From: Terriglobales bacterium
GTDB taxonomy: Bacteria; Acidobacteriota; Terriglobia; Bryobacterales; Bryobacteraceae
NCBI GenBank assembly: GCA_027485675.1
Contig: JAIXQP010000033.1
Location: forward strand, 62,001-126,000
Direction: 5' to 3'
DNA length: 64,000 nt
Shown here: piece after piece, positions 2,026 through 35,150 of the stretch
Position numbering within the stretch: position 1 is the first letter of the stretch
Layout of the letters: each line of letters begins with the position of its first letter
Translations under genes and position numbers: made by a program
Notes under the pieces: generated by a model
The model's database searches: none
The model's input: only the letters and a program-made list of their open reading frames with translations
What the model was told of the DNA's origin: nothing

Positions 2026-2028
2026 TTC

Positions 2029-3195: not shown

Positions 3196-3205
3196 AGAGG
3201 CGACG

Positions 3206-4129: not shown

Positions 4130-4160
4130 AGCCAAAGCAACAAGTGTCAGGAACATGCCC

Positions 4161-5378: not shown

Positions 5379-5399
5379 CGCGTGAGAGGAACATCGGCC

Positions 5400-6242: not shown

Positions 6243-6255
6243 TCGGAGAACGCAA

Positions 6256-7918: not shown

Positions 7919-7928
7919 GGAGACGTTG

Positions 7929-10960: not shown

Positions 10961-10980
10961 GGAGACTTCGCCAAGGAAAT

Positions 10981-13283: not shown

Positions 13284-13284
13284 T

Positions 13285-19863: not shown

Positions 19864-20926
19864 GCAAGCCGCTATCGTTGGGATCCCGGGTTCGGTTCTC
19901 GTTGTCGGGAACTTTCTGTCTCGGTCGGTCGATGTTCGCTGTGTTTGCGAGGACCTCTCGGAGCGGCTGCAGGAAGCCGGATGGTCTGTGCAGCGGACCT
20001 CGAACGTTCTCTCCCGGCCCTTGCGATTGCTCGACATGGTAGCCGCCGCTTGGCGCCACCGGGATGGATATGAGGTTGCCGTTGTTGACGTTTACAGCGG
20101 TCTGTCCTTCCTGTGGGCTGAGGCAGTGTGCCAGGTGCTCTCGCGGGCCGAAAAGCCATTTGTGCTCACCCTCCACGGCGGAAATCTCCCGTCGTTTGCC
20201 GCGCGATGGCCGAACCGGGCCGCCCGCCTGCTTCGCTCGGCCGATCTGGTGACTGCGCCGTCCGCCTACCTTCGGGAGCAGATGCTGCCCTATCGAAGCG
20301 ACATCCAGTTGATCCCCAATGCCATCGATCTGGCGGCCTATCCTTACCGCGCCCGGCCCAACGTTTCGCCGCGTCTTGTGTGGCTGCGCGCCTTTCATGA
20401 GATCTACAACCCCACGCTCGGTCCGCAAATCCTTGCGCTTCTGGAGGACGAGTTTCCTGATGTGGAACTGACCATGATCGGCCGGGACAAGGGCGATGGC
20501 AGTCTGCAACGCACTCGAGAACTCGCTCAGCGACTCGGCGTATCGGACCGGTTGCACACTCCCGGCGGCATCCCCAAGCGCGATGTTCCGGCTGGACTCA
20601 ATCAAGGGGACATCTTCCTCAACACGACGCGCGTCGACAATACGCCGATCAGTGTTCTTGAAGCCATGGCCTGTGGGTTGCCCGTTGTCAGCACGAATGT
20701 CGGTGGCATCCCGTACCTGCTCGAGCACGAACGCACGGCATTGCTTACCAGCAGCGGCGACGCTGCCGAAATGGCTGGGGCCATCCGTTCTCTGCTCACG
20801 GAACCCGCAAAAGCAGCTCGTCTGTCCACCGCCGGACGTGAGTTGGTGAACTCATTCAGTTGGCAACGTGTCCTGCCGCAGTGGCAGAACCTCTTGCAAT
20901 CCGTACGTGCGCGGCGCCGCCTATGA
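19850..20926 (+). CDS. Glycosyltransferase, GT4 family
   Basis: A 358-residue GT-B protein. The donor-binding motif NTPISVLEAMACGLPVVSTN is clear, and the LTLHGGNLPSFA segment is the acceptor-side glycine loop. It starts 14 bases before the deacetylase-like stop, and its own stop overlaps the next ATG. It is another cytoplasmic sugar transferase of the operon with unknown specificity. Confidence 0.85.
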   Translation: MSTIRQAAIVGIPGSVLVVGNFLSRSVDVRCVCEDLSERLQEAGWSVQRTSNVLSRPLRLLDMVAAAWRHRDGYEVAVVDVYSGLSFLWAEAVCQVLSRAEKPFVLTLHGGNLPSFAARWPNRAARLLRSADLVTAPSAYLREQMLPYRSDIQLIPNAIDLAAYPYRARPNVSPRLVWLRAFHEIYNPTLGPQILALLEDEFPDVELTMIGRDKGDGSLQRTRELAQRLGVSDRLHTPGGIPKRDVPAGLNQGDIFLNTTRVDNTPISVLEAMACGLPVVSTNVGGIPYLLEHERTALLTSSGDAAEMAGAIRSLLTEPAKAARLSTAGRELVNSFSWQRVLPQWQNLLQSVRARRRL

Positions 20927-22326
20927 ATCCCATCTTCTACGACCTCTACGCGAAGCTGCCCCCGTCGCTTCGTACGGTTCCAGCCACTCTGCGCGGCTAC
21001 TATCTGCGCTCCTGGCGCTATGGCCCGGAGACCCCGGAGATCGTCGCGCAAGCGCTTGAGCGGGAACGATGGAGCGCCACGCAATGGCAGCAGTGGCAAC
21101 ACGAGCGCCTGTCCCGCCAGCTCCATCGCGCCGCCACTTGCGTTCCCTACTATCGCGAGCAATGGCGGCAGCGCCGGCTCAAAGGCGACAAGGCATCCTG
21201 GGAGGTACTGGCCAACTGGCCCGTGCTCGACAAGAGAACCGTTCGCGAAGTGGGCCCGGCCCTGGTCGCCGACGATTGCGATCGATCAACCATGTTCGTG
21301 GACCGCACGAGCGGCACCACGGGCACACCGCTGGCCATCTGGCAGCGGCGGGGCGCCATCCGCGAGTGGTACGGTCTGTTCGAAGCCCGGACCCGCCTGT
21401 GGTACGGAGTCTCGCGATCGTCCCGCTGGGCCATCCTTGGTGGCCAGACCGTTACGCCGCTCTCGCAGCGCAAGCCACCGTTTTGGGTGTGGAATCATGC
21501 CCTGCATCAGTTGTATCTGTCGACATTCCATCTAAAGGCGGAACACATTCCGGACTACGCCGACGCCCTCCGCCAACATCGCATCGAGTACCTGGTTGGC
21601 TACAGCGCCGCGCTTCATGTTCTCGCCCGTCACCTGTTGACCAAGGGTCTGCGGCTTCCCATGAAGGTGGTCGTCACGAACGCCGAGCCGCTTTTTCCGC
21701 AGCAGCGAGAGGCGATCGCGGAGGCATTCTGCTGCCCCGTACACGCTACTTACGGTATGGCTGAGGCTGTTGTGGCCGCTTCCGAGTGCGAACGCGGTAC
21801 GCTCCATCTGTGGCCGGATGCCGGGGTTATGGAAGTCCTGGCGGACGGCCGGCCGGCCGCACCCGGCGTCACCGGCGACCTCATCTGTACGGGCCTGCTC
21901 AACCCGGATATGCCTTTGATTCGCTACGCCGTCGGTGATCGTGGGCGCCTATCTGCCGCTTCCGAACCCTGCGCCTGCGGACGAACGCTGCCGCGCCTGG
22001 AGTCCGTGGAGGGCCGCGCCAACGATTCCCTGGTTACTCGGGATGGGCGGCGAGTGTTCTGGTTGAACCCGGTGTTCTACAGCCTGCCTGTAGCCGAAGC
22101 ACAAATCATCCAGGAGTCGCTCGATCTCGTTCGCATTCTCTACGTGCCGGCGGATGGGTTCAATGACCAGTCCGCGCAAACCATCATCCACCGCACCCAG
22201 AAACTGATCGGTCCGGTAGAGGTTCGGCTCGAAGCCGTGGCGCAAGTACCCAGGGAGCCGAGCGGAAAGTTTCGTGCCGTGCTTTGCCGGGTGCCCGAAC
22301 CGTCCCTATCCGAAGCCCATCGATAA
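20923..22326 (+). CDS. Phenylacetate-CoA ligase-like (PaaK/CapK) adenylate-forming family protein
   Basis: A 467-residue protein. The adenylation P-loop RTSGTTGTPLA is at about 128-138. The later ATYGMAEAVVAASECERG and YAVGDRG segments are typical of the PaaK/CapK branch of AMP-forming ligases. Members in capsule loci (CapK) have no firmly established reaction but should activate a carboxylate as an adenylate or thioester. With an acyl carrier protein in the same operon, it could activate an acid for attachment to the glycan. Start and previous stop overlap by 4 bases. Confidence 0.8.
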   Translation: MNPIFYDLYAKLPPSLRTVPATLRGYYLRSWRYGPETPEIVAQALERERWSATQWQQWQHERLSRQLHRAATCVPYYREQWRQRRLKGDKASWEVLANWPVLDKRTVREVGPALVADDCDRSTMFVDRTSGTTGTPLAIWQRRGAIREWYGLFEARTRLWYGVSRSSRWAILGGQTVTPLSQRKPPFWVWNHALHQLYLSTFHLKAEHIPDYADALRQHRIEYLVGYSAALHVLARHLLTKGLRLPMKVVVTNAEPLFPQQREAIAEAFCCPVHATYGMAEAVVAASECERGTLHLWPDAGVMEVLADGRPAAPGVTGDLICTGLLNPDMPLIRYAVGDRGRLSAASEPCACGRTLPRLESVEGRANDSLVTRDGRRVFWLNPVFYSLPVAEAQIIQESLDLVRILYVPADGFNDQSAQTIIHRTQKLIGPVEVRLEAVAQVPREPSGKFRAVLCRVPEPSLSEAHR

Positions 22327-22337
22327 AGAGGCCCTCC

Positions 22338-23327
22338 ATGCCGTCTCCCCTTGTGTCCATTGTTATCGCCTGCCGCAATGAAGCCCGCTACATCGAACCC
22401 TGCATTCGCGGCTTCCTGAACGGCACCGTTCGTGAGATTGAAGTGCTCGTCGTCGATGGGGACTCTGATGATGGGTCCGCCGCCATCGTCGAGCGCATCG
22501 CGGCCACCGAAGACTCTCGGGTTCGACTCCTGCACAATCCGGCTCGCCGCACGCCGATGGCTTTTAACATTGGCATCCGCGCAGCCCAGGGCCGCTTCAT
22601 CTCCATTTTCGGAGCGCATTCCGTGCCGGCCCCCGATTGGGTTGCGGCCAATCTGAGAACCCTGGCCGAGCACCCGGAAGCCGCCGCCGTCGGGGGCGTC
22701 CTCAACACGATCAGCCACACCTTCATCGGCAAAGCCATCGCCGCCGCTCTCAGTTCCCCTTTCGGCGTCGGCAACGTGCGCTTCCGCGTGGGTGGCCAGC
22801 CTGGTCCGACCGATACCGTTGTTTTTGGCTGCTATCGGCGGGAGGTATTTGACAAGTACGGACTGTTCGATGAAAACTTTCTGACCAACCAGGATGACGA
22901 GCTGAACCTTCGCCTGGTCTCGAACGGCGAGATCCTGTACTTTGACCCCGCCATCCGCCTGGATTACAACGCCCGCCCCACATGGGGCAAGGCGCTCGAT
23001 CAATACTGGCGGTACGGTCGCTACAAGCTCAACGTGTTTCGCAAGAACGGCCGCATCGGAAGCTGGCGTCAACTGGCGCCCGCCGCCTGGACTGCCTTCC
23101 TGCTCTTTGCCGCGGTCGGCGCCGTCTTTGTGCCGGCACTGCGGGTACCTGCTCTGCTCGGCGTGGCCGCCTATCTGGCGGTCGGTATTGTCGCCATGTT
23201 TGCCAAGATTCCGCGCTACGGTTTGGCCTGCCTCTTGTTCCTGCCCGTCGCGGCCTCGATTCATCTCGCCTACGGCATCGGCACCTGGCAGGGACTTTTC
23301 GAGACCGGCTACACCCAGCGCCACTAA
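22338..23327 (+). CDS. Glycosyltransferase family 2 with C-terminal membrane segments
   Basis: A 329-residue protein. The GT-A core starts VSIVIACRNEARYIEPCIRG and has the VVDGDSDDGS metal/nucleotide region. The hydrophobic C-terminal third (about 240-320) contains two to three predicted membrane segments, as in succinoglycan-type (ExoA-like) transferases. ATG 22338 follows AAAGAGG. It probably acts at the cytoplasmic face of the inner membrane on a lipid-linked acceptor. Confidence 0.85.
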   Translation: MPSPLVSIVIACRNEARYIEPCIRGFLNGTVREIEVLVVDGDSDDGSAAIVERIAATEDSRVRLLHNPARRTPMAFNIGIRAAQGRFISIFGAHSVPAPDWVAANLRTLAEHPEAAAVGGVLNTISHTFIGKAIAAALSSPFGVGNVRFRVGGQPGPTDTVVFGCYRREVFDKYGLFDENFLTNQDDELNLRLVSNGEILYFDPAIRLDYNARPTWGKALDQYWRYGRYKLNVFRKNGRIGSWRQLAPAAWTAFLLFAAVGAVFVPALRVPALLGVAAYLAVGIVAMFAKIPRYGLACLLFLPVAASIHLAYGIGTWQGLFETGYTQRH

Positions 23328-23347
23328 GCGAGTTGTCGAGAACGATC

Positions 23348-25102
23348 ATGATCTCCACTCCCGCCGTTCCCCGTGCCGTACCCATCGTGTCGCCGAAACT
23401 GTGGCTCCTGGGCCTGGTCGCCAGCCTCGCCCTGGCCGGTGTCGCGGCGACTGGTTGGTTGACGTGGGACCGGCATACGAAGTTCGCCCTGCTCTTCGTC
23501 CAGTACGCGGTCGTGTTGCCAGTTGCAATCTCTCTCTGGCGCGCCGTTCCAGCGTCCCGGATCGAACCCACTACTTACGGTTGGCGAACTGCCACGCTCG
23601 CGTTCTTCTGTTGCCTGGTTTTCCCGCTCGCAGGCTTTCTGGGCGAGGCCACCTATTCCGGCGACGAAAGCGCCTACATCTTCCAGGCCCAATTGTTTGC
23701 CCAGGGAAAGCTGACCGCTGAGGCCCCAGGAGCAGGGCCCGTAGCGGCCTCTTCTCTGCTGGCCGATTCCGCCGTTCGGCAGAAGGTCTTCCGCTACCAG
23801 CATCACCTGACCTACCAGGGTCGCTGGTTCGGAAAGTATCCTCCCGGATGGTCCGCCGTGCTCGCCCCCGCCATGCTCTTGCATCTGGAACGCCTGGTGA
23901 ATCCGCTCGCCGGTCTCGCTATTCTCTGGGTAACGTGGCGCATAGGTTTACTCCTGTTCAACGCCATGGTCGCCGAACTCGCGCTCTTGCTTCTGGTCGC
24001 CTCGCCGTTCTTTACCCTTAGTTGCGTTGACTACTTATCGCACGCCTTGGCGGGTCTACTCCTCATCCTCGCCCTCTATTGCCTTCTGCTAGCCTGGCGG
24101 CGCAACCTGCCGGAACCCAGTGCCCATCCACTCCCGCGGTACCCCGCGGGCTGGTACCTCGCCGGCATGATGTTGTCTCTCTTCCTTCTTTGTCTCGTGC
24201 GGCCATATGTCGCAGCTTGGACGGGAACGATCCTCGGCGTCGGGGCCCTGTGGGTGATGCGCTTCCGCGCCAAGGATTCGCTTCTACTGATCTCCGTAGG
24301 CGGGGTCACCGCGGCGCTCGCAGTCTTCCTTCTCTTAGCCTTCAACAAACTCTTGACGGGCGCCTACTGGCCATACACCTATGCCCTCTATACCGGCACG
24401 GCCGGCATTACAGAGGTGGCGTTCTCGCCCTCGCAGCTCTGGGTCAACCTGACCACGCTGACTGCCACCTCGTTGGGCGAAACTGTCCTGGCCAGCTTTC
24501 CGTTCGTGTTCCCGCTGGCCGCCTTCGCCGTCTGGCGCGACCGCCGCCGGTCGAAAATCGTCTTGCTGCTGGCTGCCCTGGTCGCTTCGCTGATCGTCGC
24601 CTATCTGGGCCAGAATCATTCCTCGTTTTCGCTCACCGGGGAACGCTACTACTTTGAAACCTTCTCGATTGTCGCCATCCTCGGTGCCTGGGGGTGGGTG
24701 CTGCTCTGGCGGCACCGGCTCTTCGCCACGGCCAAGTGTGTGCTGGCTGCACTGGTCCTGTCCCAGGCGATGCTCTACCCCGCTTTCTTAGGCCGGTTGG
24801 TCCAAGCGCATGAACCCTCTCGCCAAGTCATCAGTGCCTTGAGCCAGATCCGTGCGGAACGCGCGGTGGTCTTTCTCCAAAGCAGTCAACGCTTCCGGGC
24901 GTTCGACCTGAATCCCAATGTCCCGGACTGGCGTCTAGCGCCGCTGTTCATCATGGTGGATCCCGGAGCCGCTCTCCGGCGGGATGTTGCCTGTTCGTTG
25001 GGCCGAAGCCGCTGGATCGAAGTGGGCTACAACGACCGGTCCGGCCAGGCGATTGTCGGCTCCGCGCATCCGGTTGACTGCGCAGCGTTACAGGAAAACT
25101 AA
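23348..25102 (+). CDS. Polytopic membrane protein, GT-C (family 39-like) candidate
   Basis: A 584-residue protein with about ten or more hydrophobic segments. An extracytoplasmic loop after the second or third segment carries GDESAYIFQAQLFAQGKLTA, with acidic residues placed as in GT-C transferases that use polyprenyl-phosphate sugars. ATG 23348 is preferred because the longer frame runs through the previous gene. It may add a side-chain sugar on the periplasmic side. Function is inferred from topology only. Confidence 0.6.
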   Translation: MISTPAVPRAVPIVSPKLWLLGLVASLALAGVAATGWLTWDRHTKFALLFVQYAVVLPVAISLWRAVPASRIEPTTYGWRTATLAFFCCLVFPLAGFLGEATYSGDESAYIFQAQLFAQGKLTAEAPGAGPVAASSLLADSAVRQKVFRYQHHLTYQGRWFGKYPPGWSAVLAPAMLLHLERLVNPLAGLAILWVTWRIGLLLFNAMVAELALLLLVASPFFTLSCVDYLSHALAGLLLILALYCLLLAWRRNLPEPSAHPLPRYPAGWYLAGMMLSLFLLCLVRPYVAAWTGTILGVGALWVMRFRAKDSLLLISVGGVTAALAVFLLLAFNKLLTGAYWPYTYALYTGTAGITEVAFSPSQLWVNLTTLTATSLGETVLASFPFVFPLAAFAVWRDRRRSKIVLLLAALVASLIVAYLGQNHSSFSLTGERYYFETFSIVAILGAWGWVLLWRHRLFATAKCVLAALVLSQAMLYPAFLGRLVQAHEPSRQVISALSQIRAERAVVFLQSSQRFRAFDLNPNVPDWRLAPLFIMVDPGAALRRDVACSLGRSRWIEVGYNDRSGQAIVGSAHPVDCAALQEN

Positions 25103-25119: not shown

Positions 25120-26505
25120 ATGCGCCTGCTCTCTTACTCACCGTTGCTCGTTGCCTCGTGCGTCTGTTGTGCCGCGGAGTTCTACGTAACCCCCTTCGGG
25201 TCGCCCTCCGGCAACGGCACGGCCACTCATCCCTGGGATCTCGCCTCCGCGCTCGCCCATCCCGCGGCCGTTGCTCCCGGCGATACGATTTGGCTCGGCG
25301 AAGGCACATACCGGGGCTCATTCACAAGTCGCCTGGCCGGAACCGCCGCCCTGCCCATCGTCGTGCGCGCCGAACCTGCAACCCGGGTGGTCATCGATGC
25401 CGACCGGGACACGCAATTGCCCGCCGTGCTCACCGTACGTGGGGCACACACCTGGTTTTGGGGTATCGAAGTGATGAATTCGAATCCCGCGCGGATCTAT
25501 CCCTCCGTCGCGGGCGGCCGTCCCACTGGGGTTGACATCTTTGGAAGTGGCGTCCGCCTCATCAATTGCATCCTGCATGACAATGGAAGCGGCATCGGCT
25601 TCTGGGCCAACTCGCAGGACTCGCAGGTGTACGGCACCATCGTCTACAACAACGGATGGGAAGGGCCAGAACGGGGACACGGCCATGGCGTCTATGCCCA
25701 AAACGAGAAGGGCCTGAAGCGGATCACGGACTCCGTCTTCTTCAACTCCTTCAGCCACGGGATTCATATCTATGGCTCGGAGGAAGCCTCGCTCAATCAC
25801 TTTCGGGTCGAAGGAAACATCTCCTTCGATAACGGCGCGCTATCCCGCACCGGGATCACCCGCAATATCCTGCTCGGCGGCGGCACCGTCGCGTTGGACA
25901 ATCTCCTTGCGGATAACTACACCTACTTTTCTCCTTCTTCCTTGGTTGGTCAGAACAACATTGGCTATCGCGCTGGATGTAATGGCATCACCGTCAGGCG
26001 GAACTACTTCGCCAACGGAGGATTGGTCGCCATTGAATGCCGCAACGCCGTCATTGAGGATAACTTCTTCCACCCCTACATCTTTGGCTTTCCCATCGAA
26101 CAGCTTCCCTCTAACACCTACAGCCGCTCCCGACCTACCGGTACCCGGATCTTTCTCCGCCCGAACGAGTATGAGCCCGGCCGCGCCCACGTTGCAGTTT
26201 TCAACTGGGATCGTCACAATGCCATTCTGGCCGACCTCTCCTCCGTGCTTCGTCCTGGCCAATCGTTCCAGATTCGCGACTTGCAGAATCCGCTTGGGCC
26301 GCCGGTGTTGGCTGGGGTCTATTCCGGGCAGCCGCTCAGCATCCCTCTGCATCTCACCGTAGTCGCTACCCCGGTGGGCGAGCCCGGTGTGGCGTCCCGG
26401 CACACGCCGTCTGAGTTCGGCGCCTTCCTTGTGCTCCCTTACGCCGCGTCCACTCGGGTCCGCGGCGATGACGGCGGCTCCGGCCGCCTGCCCATGAAAC
26501 CGTAA
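25120..26505 (+). CDS. Secreted right-handed parallel beta-helix protein (short paralogue)
   Basis: A 461-residue protein with an N-terminal signal peptide (cleavage near residue 18). The body begins FYVTPFGSPSGNGT and contains PGDTIWLGEGTY, NCILHDNGSG, RGHGHGVYAQN and SHGIHIYGSEE, a set of right-handed beta-helix (pectate-lyase-like) coils. Two long paralogues lie at 28884-31745 and 32027-34891; this one lacks their Ig and malectin domains. It sits in the polysaccharide operon, so it may bind or process the exported glycan. No catalytic residues can be named with certainty. Confidence 0.8.
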   Translation: MRLLSYSPLLVASCVCCAAEFYVTPFGSPSGNGTATHPWDLASALAHPAAVAPGDTIWLGEGTYRGSFTSRLAGTAALPIVVRAEPATRVVIDADRDTQLPAVLTVRGAHTWFWGIEVMNSNPARIYPSVAGGRPTGVDIFGSGVRLINCILHDNGSGIGFWANSQDSQVYGTIVYNNGWEGPERGHGHGVYAQNEKGLKRITDSVFFNSFSHGIHIYGSEEASLNHFRVEGNISFDNGALSRTGITRNILLGGGTVALDNLLADNYTYFSPSSLVGQNNIGYRAGCNGITVRRNYFANGGLVAIECRNAVIEDNFFHPYIFGFPIEQLPSNTYSRSRPTGTRIFLRPNEYEPGRAHVAVFNWDRHNAILADLSSVLRPGQSFQIRDLQNPLGPPVLAGVYSGQPLSIPLHLTVVATPVGEPGVASRHTPSEFGAFLVLPYAASTRVRGDDGGSGRLPMKP

Positions 26506-26537
26506 CGCCGCAAACGGCAAAGGAACCCAGCACCGCC

Positions 26538-28859
26538 ATGACCCTTCTCGCCTCCCTCATCCTGATCTCTCTTAGTGGATCGCTTCTAGCGTTCTTCCTG
26601 TTTCGAAGCTATTGCGCCAGCGCGCAGCTACCCTCCAACCGTATCCGCCGCTGGCTACTTGGCGAGTTTACGCCCCGGCAACTGGGTGGTTTCTCCTACC
26701 GCGCCCTGATCCTGGTCAGCTTATTTGGCTTGTTCTTGGAGTTACTCATGATTCGCTGGGTCTCCTCGGAGATTCGGATCTTCGCCTACTTCAAAAATTT
26801 CGTCCTCATCGCCTGTTTTCTCGGATTCGGTCTCGGGTCTCATCTGTCCAATCGGCCCATCCGCTTCGGCCTTCTTTTGCTGCCCCTCTGCTGGCTCGCC
26901 CTGCTCATCAAGTTGCCGATTCCGGCCCTCCGGCAATTGGTAAGCGAGCTTCCGGACTATCTGGGCGCCTTCTCAAGCGTGCACATTTGGAGCGTTCCCT
27001 CCATGTCATTCACGCCCCAGTCAATCAAGGCCTTAGCCGGCGCGATGGCCGTGGTCATCCCCATCTTTGCGTTGATCTCTCTGCTGTTCGTTCCGATCGG
27101 ACAACTCGTCGCTTGGTACCTCGAACATGCCCGGCGCGGCATCACGGCATATACAGTAAACGTCGGCGCCAGCTTGGCCGGGATTCTGCTCTATACGCTG
27201 CTCTGCTTCTACTATCAGCCACCGGCGGTCTGGTTCCTCATCGGTGGCCTGACGCTGGTGCTACTGCTGCTGCCCTTACGCCGTTTAGCGGCGGCGGCTG
27301 CCTTGGTCTTCCTCTTGTGTGCCGCTTTGGCCCAGATCACGCCCGCCGGCCGGGAGGTCCTGTGGTCGCCCTACCAGAAACTGTCGATCTCCGAGTGGCG
27401 CGATACGGATGGCACCGTGATCGGACACAACGTCAATACGAATGACAGTTGGTATCAGGTGATTATTGACCTGTCCGACTCGTTCGTCGCCGCGCATCCG
27501 CACCTGCTCCGCGGTGTCCCCATCGAATGGAATGCCTACAACCTTCCTTACCATTTCGTGAGCCGTCCGCCTTCGGTCCTCGTGCTCGGCGCCGGCACCG
27601 GTAACGACGTGGCCGCTGCCGTGCGCAATGGCGCCGGCCGCGTGGTGGCGGTGGAAATCGACCCCCTGATCTTGCAAGAAGGGAAACGGCTTCACCCCGA
27701 ACGGCCCTACGACTCGCCGAAGGTTCATGCCGTACTGGACGACGCCCGCGCCTATGTGCAAAACAGCCCCGAGAGATTCGACCTCATTTTGTTCTCTCTC
27801 CTGGACTCTCACACTACCTCGTCCCACTTTTCGAACATCCGCATCGACAACTACGTGTATACCGTCGAGGCCTTGGCCGCGGCCAAGAAGCTGCTCAAGC
27901 CGGACGGGCTGCTGGTAATGAAGTTTTGGGTGGATCGTCCTTGGATCGCCGGCCGTCTGCAGGCCTCGCTGACCCAGGTCTTCGGACAACCTCCTCTGCA
28001 ACTGGAGGCCGAGCCGTCCTACACCACCGAAGGCAGTTTCTTTATCTCCGGATCGGAGGTGACTCTTCGTCGTGCACTGAGCGATCCCCGCTTGCGGGAC
28101 TACCTGGCTGCCCACAACAAAATGCACATCTCCGCGGCGCCTGTCACGACGGACGACTGGCCGTTCTTCTACCAGGAACGCCCCGGCCTTCCGGTGAGCG
28201 TCGCCCTCATTTCCATCATCATTGCTCTGGTCTGTGCCTTTGCCTTCCGCGCTACCGGCCAATCGGGTCTGTTCGGGGCGAGCACTTTGGGGCGCCGCAC
28301 CCATTGGCACTTCTTCTGTCTGGGAGCGGCCTTCCTTTTGCTGGAAGCGCAGATCGTCAGCAAGATGGCGTTGCTGTTTGGCACCACTTGGATCGTGAAC
28401 TCGGTGGTCATCTCCGCCCTGCTGCTACTCATCATGTTGGGAAACACTTTGGTGGGGCGCTACCCGAACCTCCCCGCTATGGTTCCTTACGCAGGGATCT
28501 GGATGAGCATTCTGGTCGCCTACTTCACGCCCGTAGCCGCGCTGCTGTTGGAGTCGTTTTGGCTTCGTGCGGCGGTAGGTGGATTTGTCCTGTGCTTGCC
28601 GGTCCTGTTTGCCAGCATGATCTTTATCCGCAGCTTCTCTGCCGCTGGTTTCTCCGGTTCGGCCTTGGGGTCGAATTTGATGGGGGCCTTGATCGGGGGC
28701 CTCGCAGAATCGATATCCATGGCTACTGGGCTTCGGTCTCTGACCCTGCTGGCGGGAGCGCTCTACCTCACGGCGTTCCTCTGTCGCATGCGCCAAGAGA
28801 ACTCTGTCGCGGGCGCTCTCTCCCCGACAGTAGAGGAAAGGGAGCCTCACGTCGTGTAA
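26538..28859 (+). CDS. Membrane protein with a spermidine-synthase-like domain
   Basis: A 773-residue protein: about seven membrane segments (to about residue 270), a soluble Rossmann domain (about 280-530), then about seven more membrane segments. The nucleotide motif VLGAGTGND (349-357) and VVAVEIDP match the spermidine/spermine synthase fold. However, the GGGDG loop and the later D-x-D-P-x-G-P pattern of true aminopropyltransferases are absent (here LLDSHTTSSHFSN). Polyamine synthesis is therefore doubtful, and a membrane-tethered SAM-type transfer acting on glycan intermediates is another option. It is the last gene of the operon. Confidence 0.7.
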   Translation: MTLLASLILISLSGSLLAFFLFRSYCASAQLPSNRIRRWLLGEFTPRQLGGFSYRALILVSLFGLFLELLMIRWVSSEIRIFAYFKNFVLIACFLGFGLGSHLSNRPIRFGLLLLPLCWLALLIKLPIPALRQLVSELPDYLGAFSSVHIWSVPSMSFTPQSIKALAGAMAVVIPIFALISLLFVPIGQLVAWYLEHARRGITAYTVNVGASLAGILLYTLLCFYYQPPAVWFLIGGLTLVLLLLPLRRLAAAAALVFLLCAALAQITPAGREVLWSPYQKLSISEWRDTDGTVIGHNVNTNDSWYQVIIDLSDSFVAAHPHLLRGVPIEWNAYNLPYHFVSRPPSVLVLGAGTGNDVAAAVRNGAGRVVAVEIDPLILQEGKRLHPERPYDSPKVHAVLDDARAYVQNSPERFDLILFSLLDSHTTSSHFSNIRIDNYVYTVEALAAAKKLLKPDGLLVMKFWVDRPWIAGRLQASLTQVFGQPPLQLEAEPSYTTEGSFFISGSEVTLRRALSDPRLRDYLAAHNKMHISAAPVTTDDWPFFYQERPGLPVSVALISIIIALVCAFAFRATGQSGLFGASTLGRRTHWHFFCLGAAFLLLEAQIVSKMALLFGTTWIVNSVVISALLLLIMLGNTLVGRYPNLPAMVPYAGIWMSILVAYFTPVAALLLESFWLRAAVGGFVLCLPVLFASMIFIRSFSAAGFSGSALGSNLMGALIGGLAESISMATGLRSLTLLAGALYLTAFLCRMRQENSVAGALSPTVEEREPHVV

Positions 28860-28879
28860 GTGCTCCCTTTCCATTTTTT
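28835..28879 (+). terminator. Rho-independent terminator
   Basis: An 11-bp perfect inverted repeat has arms GGAAAGGGAGC (28835-28845) and GCTCCCTTTCC (28862-28872), a 16-base loop and then a run of six T (28874-28879). The left arm and the stop codon of the preceding gene lie within it. It closes the long plus-strand operon and separates it from the convergent gene ending at 28884. Confidence 0.85.
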
Positions 28880-28883
28880 GAGG

Positions 28884-31745
28884 TTAAAAGACTTCGATGC
28901 CGTTCACCAACGGGTTCTCGACTTGCTTCACGAATTCGATCACCAGTTGGCCATTCGGCGCCGGTACATCGAACTGATAGTCCACCGGACGCCATCCGCC
29001 CCCGGCCTCTTTCGCGATATCAAAGCGGCTGAGTACGGTGACGCCATTAATCCGAACGTCGAAGAGGCGTTGCCCGGCGATCGCGTAATAGGTCTCGGCG
29101 AACCGCAGTTTCACCTTGCGCATTCCGGCCGGTACGTTCAAGCGGTAGCTGAAGACGCCGAAGCGACAGGTCTGGTAAAGCGCCTGCTCTGGCGTTCCGG
29201 CGATTGCTTGCCGCGTTTCGAAGGCCGCTCCTCCCGTTGCCCCGGTATCCGCCTGCCACGTATTTCCCTCCTGGTCCCGAAACGCCGCCGATCCTGCGTT
29301 GATGCGCAGCGCAAAGGTAGGTTGGACAACAGGAGACGCTTCTAAGGTTAACGAGGCGGTGGAGAACTTGGTTGGGTCGGCCACGCTCACCGCCTTGGCC
29401 ACGACGGTCTGCAATTGAGCGACGCTGGCCGGTGCGGTGTATTCGCCAGTAGCGGAGATCGTGCCGACCGGCGGAGTAAGCGTCCACGTTACCGCCGTCG
29501 TGCCGGCGTTGGTAACCGTCGCCGTCAATCGGATCGTCTGGCCCGGTTGGACCGTGGCGATGGACGGGGAAACAGCAATCGTCGTTGCTGGCGGTGTTAT
29601 CGGGCCAGTTTCCGCGGGTACAATCTCAATGGCGTTCACCTGGGGATACTCTCGCTGAGTGACCAGGTCCAGTTGGATCTGTCCGTTCGTGACGGTTGCC
29701 GGGAATTCACGCTCGATATACTGCCGAAATCCACCCGCCGCTTGGAAGATGTCAAAGTTGCGAAGCACCGCTTGTCCCTGCAGATCCACTCCGAACACCC
29801 GCTGCTGCGCGGTGGTGAAGTAGAGTTCGGCGAACTTCAGTCGTACCGTGTAGCTTCCGTTGGCCATGGGAATCCGATAGCCGAGGCCGCCGTAGCGCAG
29901 GGTGCGTAGCGCCGCTGCGGCCTTCGGCGCCGCCACCTGCGCGTCGATCTGGTAAACGCTCCCGCCCGTAAAGTTGCGGTCGGCCTCCCAGCGGTCGCCG
30001 TTCGTATCCGTGAACGCCTCGCCGCCAGCGTTGATTCTGACGGTCGTCGGGAGCGGAACATTGACAGGCGCTGGGTTCACCGTCACCACGAGATCATCAA
30101 ATCCCGCGCTCGCCCCGTCGTTGGCCGTGAGCCGGAGAGTGTACTGCCCGGCAAGGCTAAATGCTGCCGTGGTTGCGGCCGCATTCGGAGCTGAAAAGGT
30201 TACCGTGCCAGGACCGGCAACCTTCGTCCATGTCCTCGACAACGTGCCGTTGGGTAGACCATCGTCAGTGACTGTGGCGTTCAGGTTGGCCTGCGAAGGC
30301 AGGGTGAGTGCCTGGTCTCGCCCGGCATCTACCGACGGCGGAAGATTCGGGGTCGGCGTCGGGCCCGGCGGAATGTCGGTGACGACGCCAGCCCGCTGGA
30401 TGACGAAGGCGCCGAATTCACCCGACGTATGAATCTGTGCCACCTGGAGCGCACCAATCGCCGGGGCGAAGCGGGTACTGGTCATCGGGATGGACACCGA
30501 GCCATTGTAAGTTCCGGTCGCGATGGGCGCGTCGAGATAATTTTCCGCGTCGCGTATCTCATACCGGTCACCAGGATTGAGGACGTTATTCAGCGCAACG
30601 GTCACCGAGGGTAGCCCGTCCCAATTGAAAACAGCGACATGAGCCCGGCCTGCCTCGTACTGGTTGGGATAGACCAGGATACGGGAGCCCGTCGGGCGGC
30701 TCTGCGTGAAGGTATTCGACGGGAAGTGATCCCCCGCGAAGTTATAGGAAAAGTGGAATAGGTTCCCCTGTATCTGTGCGCCGGACGTACAGCTAACTAG
30801 AAGATTGGCGCTGTTCGCAAAGTAGTTGCCGTCCAGAATCAGATTGTTGCATCCTGCCCGATAACCGAAATTGTTTTGCCCAACCCGGCTGTCCGGGCTG
30901 AAGTAAGTTGCATTCTGCCTTACTACCCCATTCTGGGCGACTTTGTCGCCGCCAAGCAGGATATTGCGCGTGATGCCCGTGGCCGAAATCCGTCCGTTGT
31001 TGAACCCGATGTTGCCGTCGAGAACAAAGTTGTCCAGGTAGGCCGTGCCGGAACCATAGATGTGAATGCCATGGCTGAAGGCGTTGAAGTAGATGTTGTG
31101 AGCAATGCGCTTCGTGCCATAACGATTCTGCCCGTAGATGTTGTGCCCGTGTCCCCGGTCCGGAGCGTCCCAGCCGTTGTTGAAGATCAGGTTGCCATAT
31201 ATCTCAGAATCGTCGGCCCCGGCCCATGACCCCATGCCGTTGCCATGGTCGTGGATGATACAGTTGATCACTTTGAGCCTCATGCCCTCGACGTTCACTC
31301 CCGTGGGGCGGGCGTTGTAGGGGTTCGATCCGCTCGTCTCGAATACCCGCTTCGGATGGGAATTGCGGATCTCCAGATCACGAAACCAGGCGTCCTGGCC
31401 GTTTAATTGGAGTGTTGCGGGCAATAGGACATCGGAGTTGCTATCGAGAATGGCGCGCTCGCCAGGAAACGAGCGGACCTGAATCGGGGCTGTCGGCGAA
31501 CCCTTCAGGCGGCTTTGATACTTTCCCGCATAGACTCCTCCCTTAAGCCAGATCGTGTCTCCCGGCTTGACGGCCGACGGATGGTTTAGCGCCGTCTGCA
31601 AGTCCCAGGGCCAGGCCTGCGATCCGACGCCTCCAGGGGTGCCTGTCGGAGCGACATAGAAGTCGGCGGCGCCGAGCGCCAGCGCGCCCCAGATGGCAAG
31701 CGCAGCCAGTTTCTGGGCAGGGCGAAGTATAAATCTCTTTTCCAC
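28884..31745 (-). CDS. Secreted beta-helix protein with Ig-like and two malectin-like domains
   Basis: A 953-residue protein. The GTG at 31743-31745 is chosen because AAGGAG lies 7 bases upstream and a signal peptide (cleavage near ALGAA) follows; the ATG at 31802 has no such support. Order: beta-helix (about 25-450), a PKD/Ig-like module (about 460-555), a first malectin-like domain starting VRINAGGEAF (about 560-700), a bacterial Ig-like module (about 705-790) and a second malectin-like domain (about 800-953). Malectin domains bind carbohydrate. It is likely secreted or surface-bound with a glycan target. The substrate is unknown. Confidence 0.82.
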   Translation of the reverse strand: MEKRFILRPAQKLAALAIWGALALGAADFYVAPTGTPGGVGSQAWPWDLQTALNHPSAVKPGDTIWLKGGVYAGKYQSRLKGSPTAPIQVRSFPGERAILDSNSDVLLPATLQLNGQDAWFRDLEIRNSHPKRVFETSGSNPYNARPTGVNVEGMRLKVINCIIHDHGNGMGSWAGADDSEIYGNLIFNNGWDAPDRGHGHNIYGQNRYGTKRIAHNIYFNAFSHGIHIYGSGTAYLDNFVLDGNIGFNNGRISATGITRNILLGGDKVAQNGVVRQNATYFSPDSRVGQNNFGYRAGCNNLILDGNYFANSANLLVSCTSGAQIQGNLFHFSYNFAGDHFPSNTFTQSRPTGSRILVYPNQYEAGRAHVAVFNWDGLPSVTVALNNVLNPGDRYEIRDAENYLDAPIATGTYNGSVSIPMTSTRFAPAIGALQVAQIHTSGEFGAFVIQRAGVVTDIPPGPTPTPNLPPSVDAGRDQALTLPSQANLNATVTDDGLPNGTLSRTWTKVAGPGTVTFSAPNAAATTAAFSLAGQYTLRLTANDGASAGFDDLVVTVNPAPVNVPLPTTVRINAGGEAFTDTNGDRWEADRNFTGGSVYQIDAQVAAPKAAAALRTLRYGGLGYRIPMANGSYTVRLKFAELYFTTAQQRVFGVDLQGQAVLRNFDIFQAAGGFRQYIEREFPATVTNGQIQLDLVTQREYPQVNAIEIVPAETGPITPPATTIAVSPSIATVQPGQTIRLTATVTNAGTTAVTWTLTPPVGTISATGEYTAPASVAQLQTVVAKAVSVADPTKFSTASLTLEASPVVQPTFALRINAGSAAFRDQEGNTWQADTGATGGAAFETRQAIAGTPEQALYQTCRFGVFSYRLNVPAGMRKVKLRFAETYYAIAGQRLFDVRINGVTVLSRFDIAKEAGGGWRPVDYQFDVPAPNGQLVIEFVKQVENPLVNGIEVF

Positions 31746-31792
31746 GTAGATTCTCCTTGGTGGTAAATGGTTAAGAAGGCAGCCAAGTAAGA

Positions 31793-31813
31793 TCGAATAC
31801 AAGCGTAGTCGAT
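31793..31813 (-). repeat. Shared upstream element of the two long beta-helix genes (copy 1)
   Basis: On the minus strand the block reads ATCGACTACGCTTGTATTCGA, 48-68 bases upstream of the GTG start of the gene ending at 28884. A near copy precedes the paralogue (34916-34934). It may be a shared control site or a trace of duplication. Confidence 0.35.
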
Positions 31814-31982
31814 ATACTCAACGAGTACGGCAACTGAATGGGAAAGGCTGATAATGGTAGTGAATCCCGGAGTCCTGGCTCAGGCAATTGGGAGATGACA
31901 TTAAGGAGGCGTGCAGCGCGCCTTAGGGTAGGAAAGTGAGTACGAAGTGATTACGGTGAAGTTAGTGAAGCATGGTAGCGCG

Positions 31983-32002
31983 CCCCCGGCCTTTGCCGGG
32001 GG
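31983..32002 (-). terminator. Possible terminator hairpin in the gap 31746-32026
   Basis: A perfect 8-bp stem, CCCCCGGC and GCCGGGGG with a CTTT loop, lies 24 bases beyond the stop of the gene ending at 32027. There is no T-run on the minus side, so a rho-independent role is only possible. The rest of the 281-base gap holds the upstream region of the gene starting at 31745 and no gene that I can see. Confidence 0.4.
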
Positions 32003-32026
32003 AGTCTAGGTTGGGCTGCGGCGGTA

Positions 32027-34891
32027 CTACCTGATTTCGATCGCGGCGAGGCTGGGGTTCTCCACGATCGGAATGAACTCGATAAGAATGGAACCGTTGT
32101 CAACAGAGACCGGGAACTCTCGGTCGACCGCCGACAAAGCGCCGCCGGCGGCGACGATATCGAATCCCGCCAGGACCCGGGTGCCATTGATGCGGACATC
32201 AAAGACCCGCCGGCCTGTTTGGTTGTAGTAGATTTCGGCGAACCGTAGGCGCACCGTCCGGCCGCCATTAGTGACAGGCAATAGGTAACGGAAAGTCCCA
32301 TAGCGGACTGTCTTATACAAGGTGGGGTCGGCTGTGTTACTAATCGAGTTGGTTGTCGAATAGAGCGCGCCGCCCGATACGTTGCCATCGGCCATCCAAA
32401 CGTTACCGGTGGCATCGGTATAGCCCGGTCCGCCGGTGTTCAGGCGGATGGGAGTGAATGAGGGGGATGGCGGCGGCGGGGGTTGAATCGTAACCTGTGC
32501 GGTGGCGCTCTCGGTTGGATCGGCCACACTGGTTGCGGTTACCGTTACGACGGTCGCGGTGGTGACGACCGGCGCTTGAAACAATCCGCTCGGGCTCATG
32601 CTGCCGATCGGGGCGGAGAGTGTCCAGGTGACGGCGAGGTTGGTCGCGTTGGTGACAGTGGCGGCGAACTGTTGTGTGCCCCCGGAGGCTACCGTGGCCG
32701 TGGCCGGGGTGACGTTCACCGAAACGGCAGGTAGGGGCGGCGGCGCCGTGGTCAACGGTTGGATCTCAATGGCGTTGACGAGGGCATAGTCAATTAACGA
32801 AACGAAGCCAATGGCGATTTCCCCGCTCGTGACCGCGATATCGAATTGCCGGTCTATCGGAGAGAAACCACCGCCTGCGGCGTAGAGATCAAAGGAGCTC
32901 AGTTTGGGTTGGCCGTTGATGTCGACCGAGAAGACCCTAGATCCGGCTCGCTGGTGGTAAATCTCGGCGAAGCGCAGGATCACCCGGTACGCGCCATTGG
33001 CCAACGGTTGCCGGTAGGTGAAGTTTCCGTACCGGACGGTTTGGTAGGGGTCCATTCCCGCCGGCCCGCTGATGGAGCGAGTGACGGTGAAGGTCGCCCC
33101 TCCCGAAAATCCCCTGTCCGCTTCCCAAACTTGCCCGGAGGAGTCTGTCAGAATGCCGCCTCCCGCGTTGATCCGGATGACGCCCGGCGTCGAAGGAGGG
33201 GGTGGGGGAGCCGGCGCCGCATTCACCGTCACCTGCGTTGTCGCCGAACGGGAAAGCTGACCATCGGAGGCCATCAGTCGGAGTTGGTAGGTTCCGGGGC
33301 TCGAGAAAGAGACTCCAGTGGTAGGCCCGCTCGGGTTGGTGAACGTGACCGGACCCGGGCCACTGCTGAGGGACCAGGAGTAGCTGAGCGCCGCCGTCGG
33401 CTGACCATCGTCAATCGCCGACCCGGTGACGGTAGCCGTCGCGGGAAGCGTGATGGTCTGCGCCGGTCCGGTCGTCACCGTGGGGGGCTGATTCGGAGGC
33501 GGTAAGGCAACGGATCCCGAAGCCGGCAGCACAAGGAAGCTGCCAAATCGAACGGGAGTATGAACCAACGCCACTTCGGCGACGCCCGTCAGCGGGGTGA
33601 CCGCCGTCCCGGTCATCGGGATGGTGACGGTTCCGCCCTGGTAGACGCCAGTCACGACCGGCGGCCCATAGAAGTTCTGCGCATCCCGAATCTCGTAGGC
33701 CGTCCCAACCGGGAGGATAGAGGCCAGGCTCACATTGACGCTGCTGAGGTTGTCCCAGTTGTATACCGTGACATTGCCCCGGCCCGGCTCGTACCGGTTG
33801 GGCCGCAGCAGGACTTGCAAGCCTCTCGGTTGGACGGTGGTATAGGTGTTGTTCGGAAACTGGGCGGCCGACATGCCGTCCAAAGTGCCATAGAAAAGAT
33901 TCCCGGTGAACGTCACTGCCGTACAGCTGAGTTTCATGGCCAGCGGTGCGACGAAGAAGTTTCTTTCGGCCAGCAGGTTGGTGCATCCGGCGCCGTACCC
34001 GATCTCGTTCCGGCCCGCATTGCCGGAGAAAAAGCTGGCATTGTCACGCAGCGTCAGGTTGTTCGAAACCCTGCCGCCGCCGATGATGAACTGGGTCTTG
34101 GCCCCGGCCGAAGGCGAAAGCACGCCATTGTCAAACCCGGTGTTGCCTTCGATCACGTAGTTGTCGAGGTATGCATTCTCGGAGCCGTAGATATGGATCC
34201 CGTGGCTGAAGGACTTGAAGTAGATGTTGTCGGTGATCCGCTTCACGCCCAACCGATTCTGAGAGTAGATGCTGTGGCCGTGGCCCCGATCTCCGCCCTC
34301 CCAGCCGTTGTAGTAGATCAGGGTGCCATAGATCTCCGAATCGTCCGCCCCGTTCCAGAGGCCGAATCCGCTTCCGTTGTCATGGACCACCATGTTAATG
34401 ATCTTGATGTTGGGCCCGTACACATCGATCCCGGTGGGCCGGCTGTCGCCGAGGCGCCGGACCGGATTGCTATTGGTGATTTCAAAACCCCAGAACCAGG
34501 TCCAAGCTCCTGAGACGGTCAGCACGGCCGGGGTCGATGTATTCGTGTTGGCGTCGATCGTCGCCCGCTCGCCGGGATACTGCCTGACGATGATGGGCTG
34601 GTTGACTGCCCCGCGAAGCACGCTGTTGTACTTGCCGGGATAGGTTCCCCCACGGACCCAGATCGTGTCGCCCGGCCGGATGACTGCCGGGTGGTTCAAG
34701 GCGGTCTGCAAGTTCCAGGGGTTTTGGATTTGGCCGGTGCCGGAGGGAGATCCGTTCGGCGCTACGTAGTACTCCGCGGCGGAAGCGGAGTATAAACAGC
34801 CCAGAAGGGCGAAAGCGAATCGGATGACAGGATGTCGGACGGTAGAAGCGAAAGGAGTGAAAAGGAGGGGATCCGGTCGGAATCGGTTCAT
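32027..34891 (-). CDS. Secreted beta-helix protein with Ig-like and two malectin-like domains (paralogue)
   Basis: A 954-residue protein with the same plan as the gene at 28884: signal peptide (cleavage near residue 38), beta-helix with PGDTIWVRGGTY, NMVVHDNGSG, RGHGHSIYSQN and SHGIHIYGSEN (about 40-470), a PKD/Ig-like module (about 480-570), malectin-like domain 1 (IRINAGGGIL, about 580-715), an Ig-like module (about 720-810) and malectin-like domain 2 (about 820-954). The start ATG has an AGG-containing site upstream. The two genes are tandem copies with clear sequence divergence. A carbohydrate-directed role outside the cytoplasm is likely. Confidence 0.82.
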   Translation of the reverse strand: MNRFRPDPLLFTPFASTVRHPVIRFAFALLGCLYSASAAEYYVAPNGSPSGTGQIQNPWNLQTALNHPAVIRPGDTIWVRGGTYPGKYNSVLRGAVNQPIIVRQYPGERATIDANTNTSTPAVLTVSGAWTWFWGFEITNSNPVRRLGDSRPTGIDVYGPNIKIINMVVHDNGSGFGLWNGADDSEIYGTLIYYNGWEGGDRGHGHSIYSQNRLGVKRITDNIYFKSFSHGIHIYGSENAYLDNYVIEGNTGFDNGVLSPSAGAKTQFIIGGGRVSNNLTLRDNASFFSGNAGRNEIGYGAGCTNLLAERNFFVAPLAMKLSCTAVTFTGNLFYGTLDGMSAAQFPNNTYTTVQPRGLQVLLRPNRYEPGRGNVTVYNWDNLSSVNVSLASILPVGTAYEIRDAQNFYGPPVVTGVYQGGTVTIPMTGTAVTPLTGVAEVALVHTPVRFGSFLVLPASGSVALPPPNQPPTVTTGPAQTITLPATATVTGSAIDDGQPTAALSYSWSLSSGPGPVTFTNPSGPTTGVSFSSPGTYQLRLMASDGQLSRSATTQVTVNAAPAPPPPPSTPGVIRINAGGGILTDSSGQVWEADRGFSGGATFTVTRSISGPAGMDPYQTVRYGNFTYRQPLANGAYRVILRFAEIYHQRAGSRVFSVDINGQPKLSSFDLYAAGGGFSPIDRQFDIAVTSGEIAIGFVSLIDYALVNAIEIQPLTTAPPPLPAVSVNVTPATATVASGGTQQFAATVTNATNLAVTWTLSAPIGSMSPSGLFQAPVVTTATVVTVTATSVADPTESATAQVTIQPPPPPSPSFTPIRLNTGGPGYTDATGNVWMADGNVSGGALYSTTNSISNTADPTLYKTVRYGTFRYLLPVTNGGRTVRLRFAEIYYNQTGRRVFDVRINGTRVLAGFDIVAAGGALSAVDREFPVSVDNGSILIEFIPIVENPSLAAIEIR

Positions 34892-34934: not shown

Positions 34935-35114
34935 TTTGCTTGCATTCCATCTTGAGAACGCGTACCATTGGTGTTAAATCTAAACGTCTATTCTCTTCTC
35001 TGTCAACAGGTTTTCGCCTAAAAACAGATTGAGGACAAGTGTATACGTACGTCCAGTAGTGCTTTGAGCGGCATGCGTGTACCCATTTTTTCCTGTGTTT
35101 TGTAGTGTTTGGCC

Positions 35115-35133: not shown

Positions 35134-35150
35134 CTGCCGGAGGTATTTTT

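What the first reader, a model, noticed from the sequence alone, without database searches (positions are those of the whole stretch)
25120..34891. Three paralogous beta-helix proteins beside a polysaccharide operon, two with paired malectin-like domains
The N-terminal ~450 residues share PGDTIW, HDNGSG-like, RGHGH and SHGIHIYGS motifs in all three. The two longer copies each add Ig-like, malectin, Ig-like, malectin modules. Malectins bind sugars, so these may be surface-attached glycan processors or binders specific to the polysaccharide made upstream.
Basis: partly seen in the sequence, partly recalled or inferred. Interest (0 to 1): 0.6.

Follow-up and report, generated by a model that had tools for sequence, protein, structure and literature searches.

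The report
Beta-helix trio at a polysaccharide locus
Three related, apparently secreted proteins sit in and beside a large gene cluster that builds a surface sugar polymer in soil acidobacteria, and they probably trim or remodel that polymer; the family is uncharacterised, but the idea of a bacterium keeping such an enzyme beside its own polymer genes is known.

Summary
Three paralogs (A 25120-26505 +, B 28884-31802 -, C 32027-34891 -) share a ~440-residue domain (B and C 51% and 48% identical to A). B and C each add PKD, malectin, Ig-like and malectin modules.

A is predicted to be a right-handed beta-helix plus a beta-sandwich. Its nearest solved folds are polysaccharide lyases and a glycoside hydrolase. 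It passes the Pfam cut-off of no family but generic Beta_helix.

A lies inside the polysaccharide operon. The block is syntenic in 4 of 18 other genus genomes; the other 14 have no strong A match and no match to the operon marker tested. In 396 Acidobacteriota genomes, 14 hold the family; 13 of these also hold a close homolog of the operon's AMP-binding gene, against 18 of 382 others. In 8 of the 13 both genes share a contig, within 48 kb.

Best reading: secreted enzymes, probably lyase- or epimerase-like, acting on the cell's own polymer, B and C being duplicates with binding modules. Catalysis, substrate and surface attachment are not shown. Near-invariant Tyr192 aligns with the catalytic Tyr of one alginate lyase, but that enzyme's second catalytic residue is not matched. 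New variant of a known kind.

The parts
25120..26505 (+). Gene A: 461-aa beta-helix protein inside the polysaccharide operon (helix about residues 18-335, C-terminal beta-sandwich about 336-440; signal peptide by eye)
   Evidence: ORF; Pfam Beta_helix; AF2 model pLDDT 85.7, pTM 0.88; gaps of 17 and 32 bp to the neighbours
25672..25695 (+). RGHGHGVY motif of A (R185, H187, H189, Y192), the candidate active-site strand
   Evidence: conservation in 41 family members: Y192 40/41, H189 37/41, R185 34/40, H187 34/40; aligned to the catalytic Tyr184 strand of PsAly
25753..25779 (+). SHGIHIYGS motif of A (residues 212-220), next coil of the helix
   Evidence: identical in A, B, C; less conserved in the wider family (H213 15/41, H216 24/41, Y218 33/41); coordinates checked
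28884..31802 (-). Gene B: beta-helix + PKD + malectin + Ig-like + malectin, 972 aa (TTG start, true start uncertain)
   Evidence: of the 4 other syntenic genomes only G017/SbA3 has it
30393..31670 (-). B: beta-helix and sandwich domain (edges approximate)
30078..30326 (-). B: K319L-like PKD domain
29661..30044 (-). B: first malectin domain
29430..29588 (-). B: Big_2-like Ig domain (just under the Pfam cut-off)
28887..29351 (-). B: second malectin domain
32027..34891 (-). Gene C: same architecture, 954 aa
   Evidence: orthologs in all 4 other syntenic genomes
33512..34780 (-). C: beta-helix and sandwich domain (edges approximate)
33224..33469 (-). C: K319L-like PKD domain
32756..33184 (-). C: first malectin domain (edges approximate)
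32492..32728 (-). C: Ig-like stretch by alignment with B (no Pfam call)
32030..32476 (-). C: second malectin domain; best PDB sequence match is malectin 2jwp, E 4.4e-14
51..25102 (+). Polysaccharide operon: FkbH-like, deacetylases, UDP-GlcNAc 2-epimerase, CTP transferase, AsnB-like, Wzt-like ATPase, GT2/GT4s, PaaK-like AMP-binding enzyme; continues upstream of the window
   Evidence: upstream part
20860..22326 (+). g19: PaaK/CapK-like AMP-binding enzyme, the marker that co-occurs with the beta-helix family
19850..20926 (+). g18: GT4 glycosyltransferase next to g19
26538..28859 (+). Gene after A on the same strand, spermidine-synthase-like membrane protein; syntenic, not part of the family

Best explanation
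A, B and C belong to one uncharacterised family of secreted right-handed beta-helix proteins that act on the polysaccharide made by the locus they sit in. A is made with the biosynthetic operon and would work in the periplasm or just outside, most likely as a lyase- or epimerase-type enzyme whose active strand is RGHGHxxY. It would cut, trim or epimerise the polymer during or after export. B and C arose by duplication within this lineage and gained two malectin-type modules, which would hold the same catalytic core on the finished polymer outside the cell. Shown: family, fold prediction, operon position, synteny, co-occurrence, purifying selection. Inferred: secretion, catalysis, substrate, carbohydrate binding, division of labour.
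For: Fold: the AF2 model (pLDDT 85.7, pTM 0.88) best matches pectate lyase Pel9A (Z 29.7, 3.6 A over 321), BT_1002 glycoside hydrolase (Z 29.1, 2.8 A/302), rhamnogalacturonan lyase (Z 28.2), alginate lyase PsAly (Z 27.1, 2.6 A/270), alginate epimerases (Z 24.7-25.9) and RbmB (Z 23.5). Sequence: the 16-row profile reaches PsAly at 5e-8. Near-invariant polar residues in 41 members: E117 41/41, Y192 40/41, H153 40/41, H189 37/41. Y192 falls on PsAly's catalytic Tyr184 in three alignments (role from passages of PMC6796002). Context: operon gaps of 17 and 32 bp; synteny of 23 to 26 or more genes in 4 other genomes; strong A matches and the operon marker are in the same 5 of 19 genus genomes. Phylum: 13 of 14 A-family genomes hold g19 against 18 of 382 without (Fisher 3.6e-15), or 11 of 12 genera against 15 of 199 (1.2e-10); 8 of 13 on the same contig within 48 kb. 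dN/dS 0.03-0.10 on the helix domain. A UDP-sugar dehydrogenase and NeuB in the locus would supply acidic sugars, as a lyase would need (inference).
Against: A shared fold shows no function; Foldseek TM-scores are moderate (0.48-0.53 of the query for the top lyases). Beta-helix proteins not thought to be enzymes (PfbA, NosD; recalled) score Z 21.6 and 23.0. The PsAly sequence link depends largely on the N-terminal cap: a 35-row profile of residues 104-330 alone does not find PsAly. PsAly's second catalytic residue (Lys221) is not matched, and HMMER does not put SHGIHIYGS on that strand; that register is my inference. Y218 is Phe in 7 of 41 and H213/H216 vary. Members exist outside such loci: G053, G454, L035 (SbA4) and a Poribacteria contig, L036. 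In G039 and G044 the A relative and g19 lie on different contigs. In the first malectin domain one of the aligned aromatic positions is His in the C-type proteins. Co-occurrence is not corrected for phylogeny beyond genus counts.
Confidence: 0.5

Rival explanations
1. Non-catalytic matrix or export proteins: the beta-helix is a rigid scaffold that binds the polymer (as matrix adhesin or export guide), and B and C are cross-linkers with two sugar-binding modules each.
For: Repeated addition of binding-type modules (malectin, PKD, Laminin_G, CHB_HEX_C, FG-GAP); repeated lineage-specific duplication; beta-helices recalled as non-enzymatic (PfbA, NosD) also match the model; no known catalytic set is complete.
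Against: Near-invariant Tyr, His and Glu residues across 41 divergent members (nine lettered families of the phylum, further named Acidobacteriota contigs and one Poribacteria contig) are more than a scaffold would seem to need; Pfam finds no binding module in A.
Confidence: 0.25
2. Glycoside hydrolase: a beta-helix hydrolase (BT_1002-like or GH28-like) that uses acidic residues such as the invariant Glu117 to trim the polymer or its side groups.
For: BT_1002 is the second-best structural match with the lowest rmsd of the top four (2.8 A over 302); the C-terminal sandwich resembles the Melibiase_C domain of glycoside hydrolases in 2 of 16 members at E<=0.1; E117 41/41.
Against: A retaining or inverting pair of acids could not be identified; no significant sequence match to BT_1002 (not listed for A at E<=1; the best seen was E 0.5 for L036).
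Confidence: 0.15
3. Catabolic enzymes for environmental (plant or other microbial) polysaccharides that merely lie beside a biosynthetic locus.
For: NCBIfam gives far-under-cut-off hits of B and C to beta-arabinosidase-type proteins and of A and C to pectate lyase PelN; the Poribacteria relative sits beside a sulfatase-like gene (read by eye).
Against: A is within the operon, and the block is syntenic in five genomes while its two tested genes have no strong match in the other 14 of the genus; co-occurrence with biosynthetic genes across the phylum.
Confidence: 0.1

Closest known systems
Vibrio cholerae RbmB (VPS lyase; PMC11637428, abstract, outline and two passages seen; PDB 9ozd)
   Same: Beta-helix enzyme for the cell's own matrix polysaccharide; the model of A aligns with Z 23.5, 2.9 A over 266 residues.
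   Different: 14% identity; the activity of A is unknown; different polymer and export type (VPS is called Wzy/Wzx-like in the passage seen; here an ABC-2 permease and a Wzt-like ATPase).
PsAly alginate lyase of Paenibacillus (PDB 6kfn; PMC6796002, passages seen; CAZy family PL31 is recalled)
   Same: Best sequence match of the 16-row profile in the PDB (E 5e-8); fold Z 27.1, 2.6 A/270; catalytic Tyr184 aligned to Y192; cation ligand Glu181 aligned to H189.
   Different: Catalytic Lys221 and the acidic cation ligands not matched; the PsAly alignment ends before A's C-terminal sandwich (model range 18-329).
PL9 lyases (Pel9A 1ru4; BT rhamnogalacturonan lyase 5olr)
   Same: Highest and third-highest fold scores (Z 29.7 and 28.2).
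   Different: PL9 uses a catalytic Lys and Asp-bound calcium (PMC6627557, passages seen); no Lys of A reaches 85% conservation in the family (K200 is 28/41); sequence matches are confined to the cap or not significant.
AlgL, alginate lyase of the P. aeruginosa alginate operon (PMC8829089, abstract and outline seen)
   Same: Periplasmic lyase gene inside the biosynthetic operon of its own substrate.
   Different: Unrelated (alpha/alpha)5 toroid fold.
Malectin / CBM57 domains (Xenopus malectin 2jwp; the name CBM57 for malectin is recalled)
   Same: C's second malectin, the one of four that was searched, matches malectin at 4.4e-14; the W, Y and Y positions checked are identical in all 7 B/C proteins in both domains.
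   Different: Bacterial, in tandem with a beta-helix; ligand unknown; the position next to the second Tyr in the first malectin is His in the 5 C-type proteins and Phe in the 2 B-type.

Membership tests
Malectin domain (PF11721) | Score above the Pfam gathering cut-off, two stretches in each of B and C | tested here: met
   177.4 and 178.2 bits against 23, two stretches each
Malectin domain (PF11721) | Binds carbohydrate | not testable with these tools
   Only conservation of aligned aromatic positions was seen, with one His exception; which malectin residues touch the ligand is recalled
Right-handed beta-helix superfamily | Pfam Beta_helix above cut-off and parallel beta-helix fold | tested here: met
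   A 30.4 bits vs 25.9; C 18.7, under it; 14 of 16 members match at E<=0.1; AF2 model and Z>20 to many beta-helices
PL9 (Pel9A) | Sequence membership (Pel9A-like profile) | tested here: not met
PL9 (Pel9A) | Catalytic lysine | tested here: inconclusive
   No Lys of A reaches 85% among 41 members (K200 is 28/41), but no residue-level superposition with 1ru4 was available
PL6 (chondroitinase B / alginate lyase) | Pfam Chondroitinas_B above cut-off | tested here: not met
   14.1 bits against 24 for A; 6 of 16 members match at E<=0.1, best 0.0027
PsAly-type alginate lyase | Catalytic Tyr184 | tested here: met
   Y192 aligned; 40/41 conserved. Whole-sequence E-values 5e-8, 1e-4, 0.0035; not recovered by the core-only profile
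PsAly-type alginate lyase | Catalytic Lys221 and acidic cation ligands | tested here: not met
   Glu181 position is His189; no Lys of A reaches 85% in the family; by my coil register Lys221 would be Y218
Own-locus polysaccharide-processing enzyme (AlgL, RbmB type) | Gene lies within the biosynthetic locus and co-occurs with it | tested here: met
Own-locus polysaccharide-processing enzyme (AlgL, RbmB type) | Acts on the polymer of that locus | not testable with these tools
   needs biochemistry
Surface-anchored protein | Recognisable sorting or anchor signal | tested here: inconclusive
   No sorting-signal family among the Pfam and NCBIfam hits of A, B, C at E<=0.1; a signal peptide ending AAE/AAD was read by eye only

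The most novel reading that the evidence does not exclude
The family is a new class of beta-helix polysaccharide lyase or epimerase with a Tyr/His active strand (RGHGHxxY) in place of the Lys/Asp-calcium or Arg centres of known beta-helix lyases. It is dedicated to a conserved acidobacterial surface polymer whose locus carries a GT4/PaaK-like pair. Lineage after lineage has duplicated it and fitted copies with different binding modules, giving such species a set of self-matrix remodelling enzymes.
Probability: 0.3. Interest if true: 0.6.

Novelty: new variant of a known kind. Interest (0 to 1): 0.42.

Why it matters
Acidobacteriota are abundant in many soils, and their surface polymers are little characterised (both recalled). 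A phylum-wide pairing between a beta-helix family and one polysaccharide locus gives a concrete enzyme-substrate pair to test. If it holds, it yields a tool enzyme for an unstudied polymer and possibly a new active-site type on a well-known fold.

Tried and rejected
Full-length fold of C: pLDDT 60.1, pTM 0.40 with 7 sequences; not used. The C-terminal sandwich of A was not folded or searched by itself; one search says its rows span mainly residues 18-345.

PsAly link by the core alone: a 35-row profile of residues 104-330 (35 of 41 rows given) found no lyase at E<=1; it listed 5 chains, a subunit named CA3, an acyltransferase and three alpha-galactosidase entries. This lowers the weight of the Tyr192/Tyr184 match.

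A three-histidine metal site (H189, H213, H216) looked attractive in A, B and C, but H213 is His in 15 of 41 and H216 in 24 of 41; rejected as a family feature.

I first called gene 10705-12462 an ABC permease (label g10_perm). NCBIfam puts it nearest a glycosyltransferase family (BFO_1060, 42.7 bits against a cut-off of 200). The ABC-2 permease is upstream of the window. One search is therefore a test with a glycosyltransferase-like operon gene.

Is g19 the special partner? The other operon genes co-occur nearly as well (g18 11 of 14, 2-epimerase 11 of 14), so the link is to the locus, not shown to be to g19 alone. The thresholds for the 61 relatives (E<1e-30, E<1e-100) were chosen after seeing the rows; those were set before each run, informed. 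In those runs only the best few candidates per genome were scored, so misses are possible.

Paper searches (listings only, unless said elsewhere). Nothing on this family was found in: beta-helix + exopolysaccharide + malectin, 1 unrelated; WcaM + colanic acid + beta-helix, 0; Sulfopaludibacter + polysaccharide, 2, titles and abstract starts seen; CapK and related terms, 15, 10 listed; Acidobacteria + exopolysaccharide + gene cluster + beta-helix, 0; malectin + polysaccharide lyase + CBM57, 3; Acidobacteri + malectin, 1 unrelated. Searches (RbmB; Pel9A; AlgL and others) gave the papers cited. Absence from print is claimed only for these searches.


Full report
What is there. Three ORFs (A 25120-26505 +, 461 aa; B 28884-31802 -, 972 aa; C 32027-34891 -, 954 aa) share an N-terminal domain of about 440 residues. 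They are the only matches to A in the 6.59 Mb genome at E<=0.001. B and C continue with a PKD domain, a malectin domain, an Ig-like stretch and a second malectin domain. The second Ig-like stretch is called weakly in B and only by alignment in C. The span also contains 26538-28859, an unrelated spermidine-synthase-like membrane protein.

Setting. A lies inside a long + strand operon, 17 bp after the preceding gene and 32 bp before the next. The operon encodes an FkbH-like protein, two polysaccharide deacetylases, a UDP-GlcNAc 2-epimerase, a cytidylyltransferase, an AsnB-like enzyme, a Wzt-like ATPase, several GT2 and GT4 glycosyltransferases and a PaaK-like AMP-binding enzyme. Upstream of the window, between about C29:46.5 and 62 kb, the locus goes on with a UDP-sugar dehydrogenase, a polysaccharide export protein, a Wzc-like protein, a sugar transferase, DegT, a CapD-like dehydratase, an ABC-2 permease, a NeuB-family enzyme and a MaoC-SDR fusion. 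The polymer is therefore likely acidic, which is an inference. B and C form a separate - strand pair behind the operon, 224 bp apart.

Conservation in the genus. The genome belongs with Candidatus Sulfopaludibacter-like Acidobacteriota: a named relative is SbA3 (CAMDCN010000008), whose contig length equals that of G017. In four other genomes (G009, G015, G016, G017) the block through A, the spermidine-synthase-like gene, C, the PEP-CTERM gene and glmS is syntenic. It was seen from the FkbH gene on in three of them; in G017 the fetched stretch begins in the GT2 gene 5382-6242. B is present only in the window genome and G017. Of 19 genus genomes, the same 5 hold strong A matches and the operon marker 11020-12459; G010 has one weak 85-residue match to A (E 6e-4). 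dN/dS, from three genomes for A and C and one for B, is 0.03-0.10 over the helix domain, 0.03-0.17 over the sandwich and 0.06-0.23 over the added modules where defined. Synonymous sites are near saturation (pS 0.53-0.80) and three comparisons were undefined, so these are rough.

Wider distribution. Among 61 genomes (the window's and 60 relatives), 10 have A-family matches at E<1e-30 and 9 have g19 matches at E<1e-100; the 9 are all among the 10. The exception is G053. In G039 and G044 the two are on different contigs. In an even sample of 396 Acidobacteriota genomes, 14 hold the family at E<=1e-25 and 31 hold g19 at E<=1e-60; 13 overlap, against 18 of 382 genomes without the family (Fisher 3.6e-15). 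By genus it is 11 of 12 against 15 of 199 (1.2e-10). g18 overlaps in 11 of 14 (22 genomes in all) and the 2-epimerase in 11 of 14 (32 in all). In 8 of the 13 genomes, the window's included, A and g19 are on one contig, 1.2 to 48 kb apart; in the other 5 they are on different contigs. Counter-examples are G454 (none of the three genes at these thresholds), G053, the SbA4 contig L035 and a Poribacteria contig L036, where no operon homolog was seen in the stretch held. No phylogenetic correction beyond genus counting was made.

Family history. A tree of 41 members (49 hits less 5 duplicates and 3 short pieces) puts the 12 A, B and C orthologs in one group (99/97), with A, C and B each one group (100/100). 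So the duplications happened in this lineage and predate the split of these five genomes; B was then lost, or is missing from the assembly, in three. Other genomes have their own sets in separate groups: G252 four, G235 three, G338 two (plus a fragment), SbA4 two. The added modules differ among relatives: of 9 long ones scanned, the hits were CHB_HEX_C and fn3, tandem PKD, CAP (two), FG-GAP (two), Laminin_G (two, one with PKD), and malectin with GH115_C and BACON (one). Malectins are thus one of several attachments to a common core.

Fold and active-site candidates. The model of A is good over most of residues 18-440 (mean pLDDT 85.7, pTM 0.88; signal peptide, a loop at 241-244 and the tail are low). 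Second-look alignments rank pectate lyase Pel9A (Z 29.7, 3.6 A, 321 residues), BT_1002 (29.1, 2.8 A, 302), rhamnogalacturonan lyase (28.2), PsAly (27.1, 2.6 A, 270), alginate epimerases (24.7-25.9) and RbmB (23.5, 2.9 A, 266). By sequence, PsAly is the best PDB match of the 16-row profile (5e-8) and of A alone (1e-4), and the second of the 3-row profile (0.0035). In these three alignments the strand RGHGHGVY lies on PsAly AGFGEGIY, so Y192 meets Tyr184 and H189 meets the cation ligand Glu181. PsAly's roles come from passages of PMC6796002; the numbering offset was set from its His154 and Arg156. The next coil, HGIHIY, has the same spacing as PsAly Glu216, Asp219 and Lys221, but HMMER aligns it elsewhere; this register is my inference. 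A profile of the core without the cap does not find PsAly. Across 41 members E117, N195, N295 and N315 are invariant; Y192, H153 and R355 are 40/41; H189 37/41; R185 and H187 34/40; Y218 33/41 with Phe in 7; H216 24/41; H213 15/41. No complete catalytic set of a known family is met.

Mechanism. I take the trio as secreted enzymes for the self polymer, lyase- or epimerase-like, with A serving the export stage and B and C serving the outer matrix through their malectin modules. Precedents are AlgL, a lyase inside the alginate operon that clears polymer from the periplasm (PMC8829089, abstract), and RbmB, a beta-helix lyase that cuts the cell's own VPS (PMC11637428, abstract and passages). Secretion, catalysis, substrate and the split of roles are inferred; family, fold prediction, linkage and selection are shown. 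Rivals are a binding scaffold (0.25), a hydrolase (0.15) and a catabolic enzyme that merely lies there (0.1).

Verdict. A real, well-conserved feature and a family for which no description was found in the searches made, but of a known general kind.

Noticed in passing
35109-35819: PEP-CTERM protein divergent from C, syntenic in all five genomes; the genome has an exosortase elsewhere on the same contig (G000:C29:202153-202914). Whether it has any part in holding B and C at the surface is unknown.
   Followed up: partly
26538-28859: Spermidine-synthase-like domain inside a protein with many hydrophobic stretches (by eye), the gene after A on the same strand, conserved in all five genomes; role in a polysaccharide locus unclear.
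   Followed up: no
L059, L074 (G235); L060, L073, L076, L079 (G252); L058, L072 (G338); L035 (SbA4): Independent lineage-specific duplications of the same beta-helix family, two to four copies per genome, each set in its own group of the tree.
   Followed up: partly
L062 and L063 (G351, G335): Beta-helix family members fused to a CAP (cysteine-rich secretory protein) domain.
   Followed up: no
39048-40811: GH29 alpha-L-fucosidase gene near the locus; not found in the fetched downstream stretches of G016 and G017, so probably not part of the system.
   Followed up: partly
51-1742 and upstream L046 18490-19842: FkbH-like protein and a MaoC-SDR fusion in the polysaccharide locus, together with the PaaK-like enzyme, hint at an unusual acyl substituent on the polymer.
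   Followed up: no
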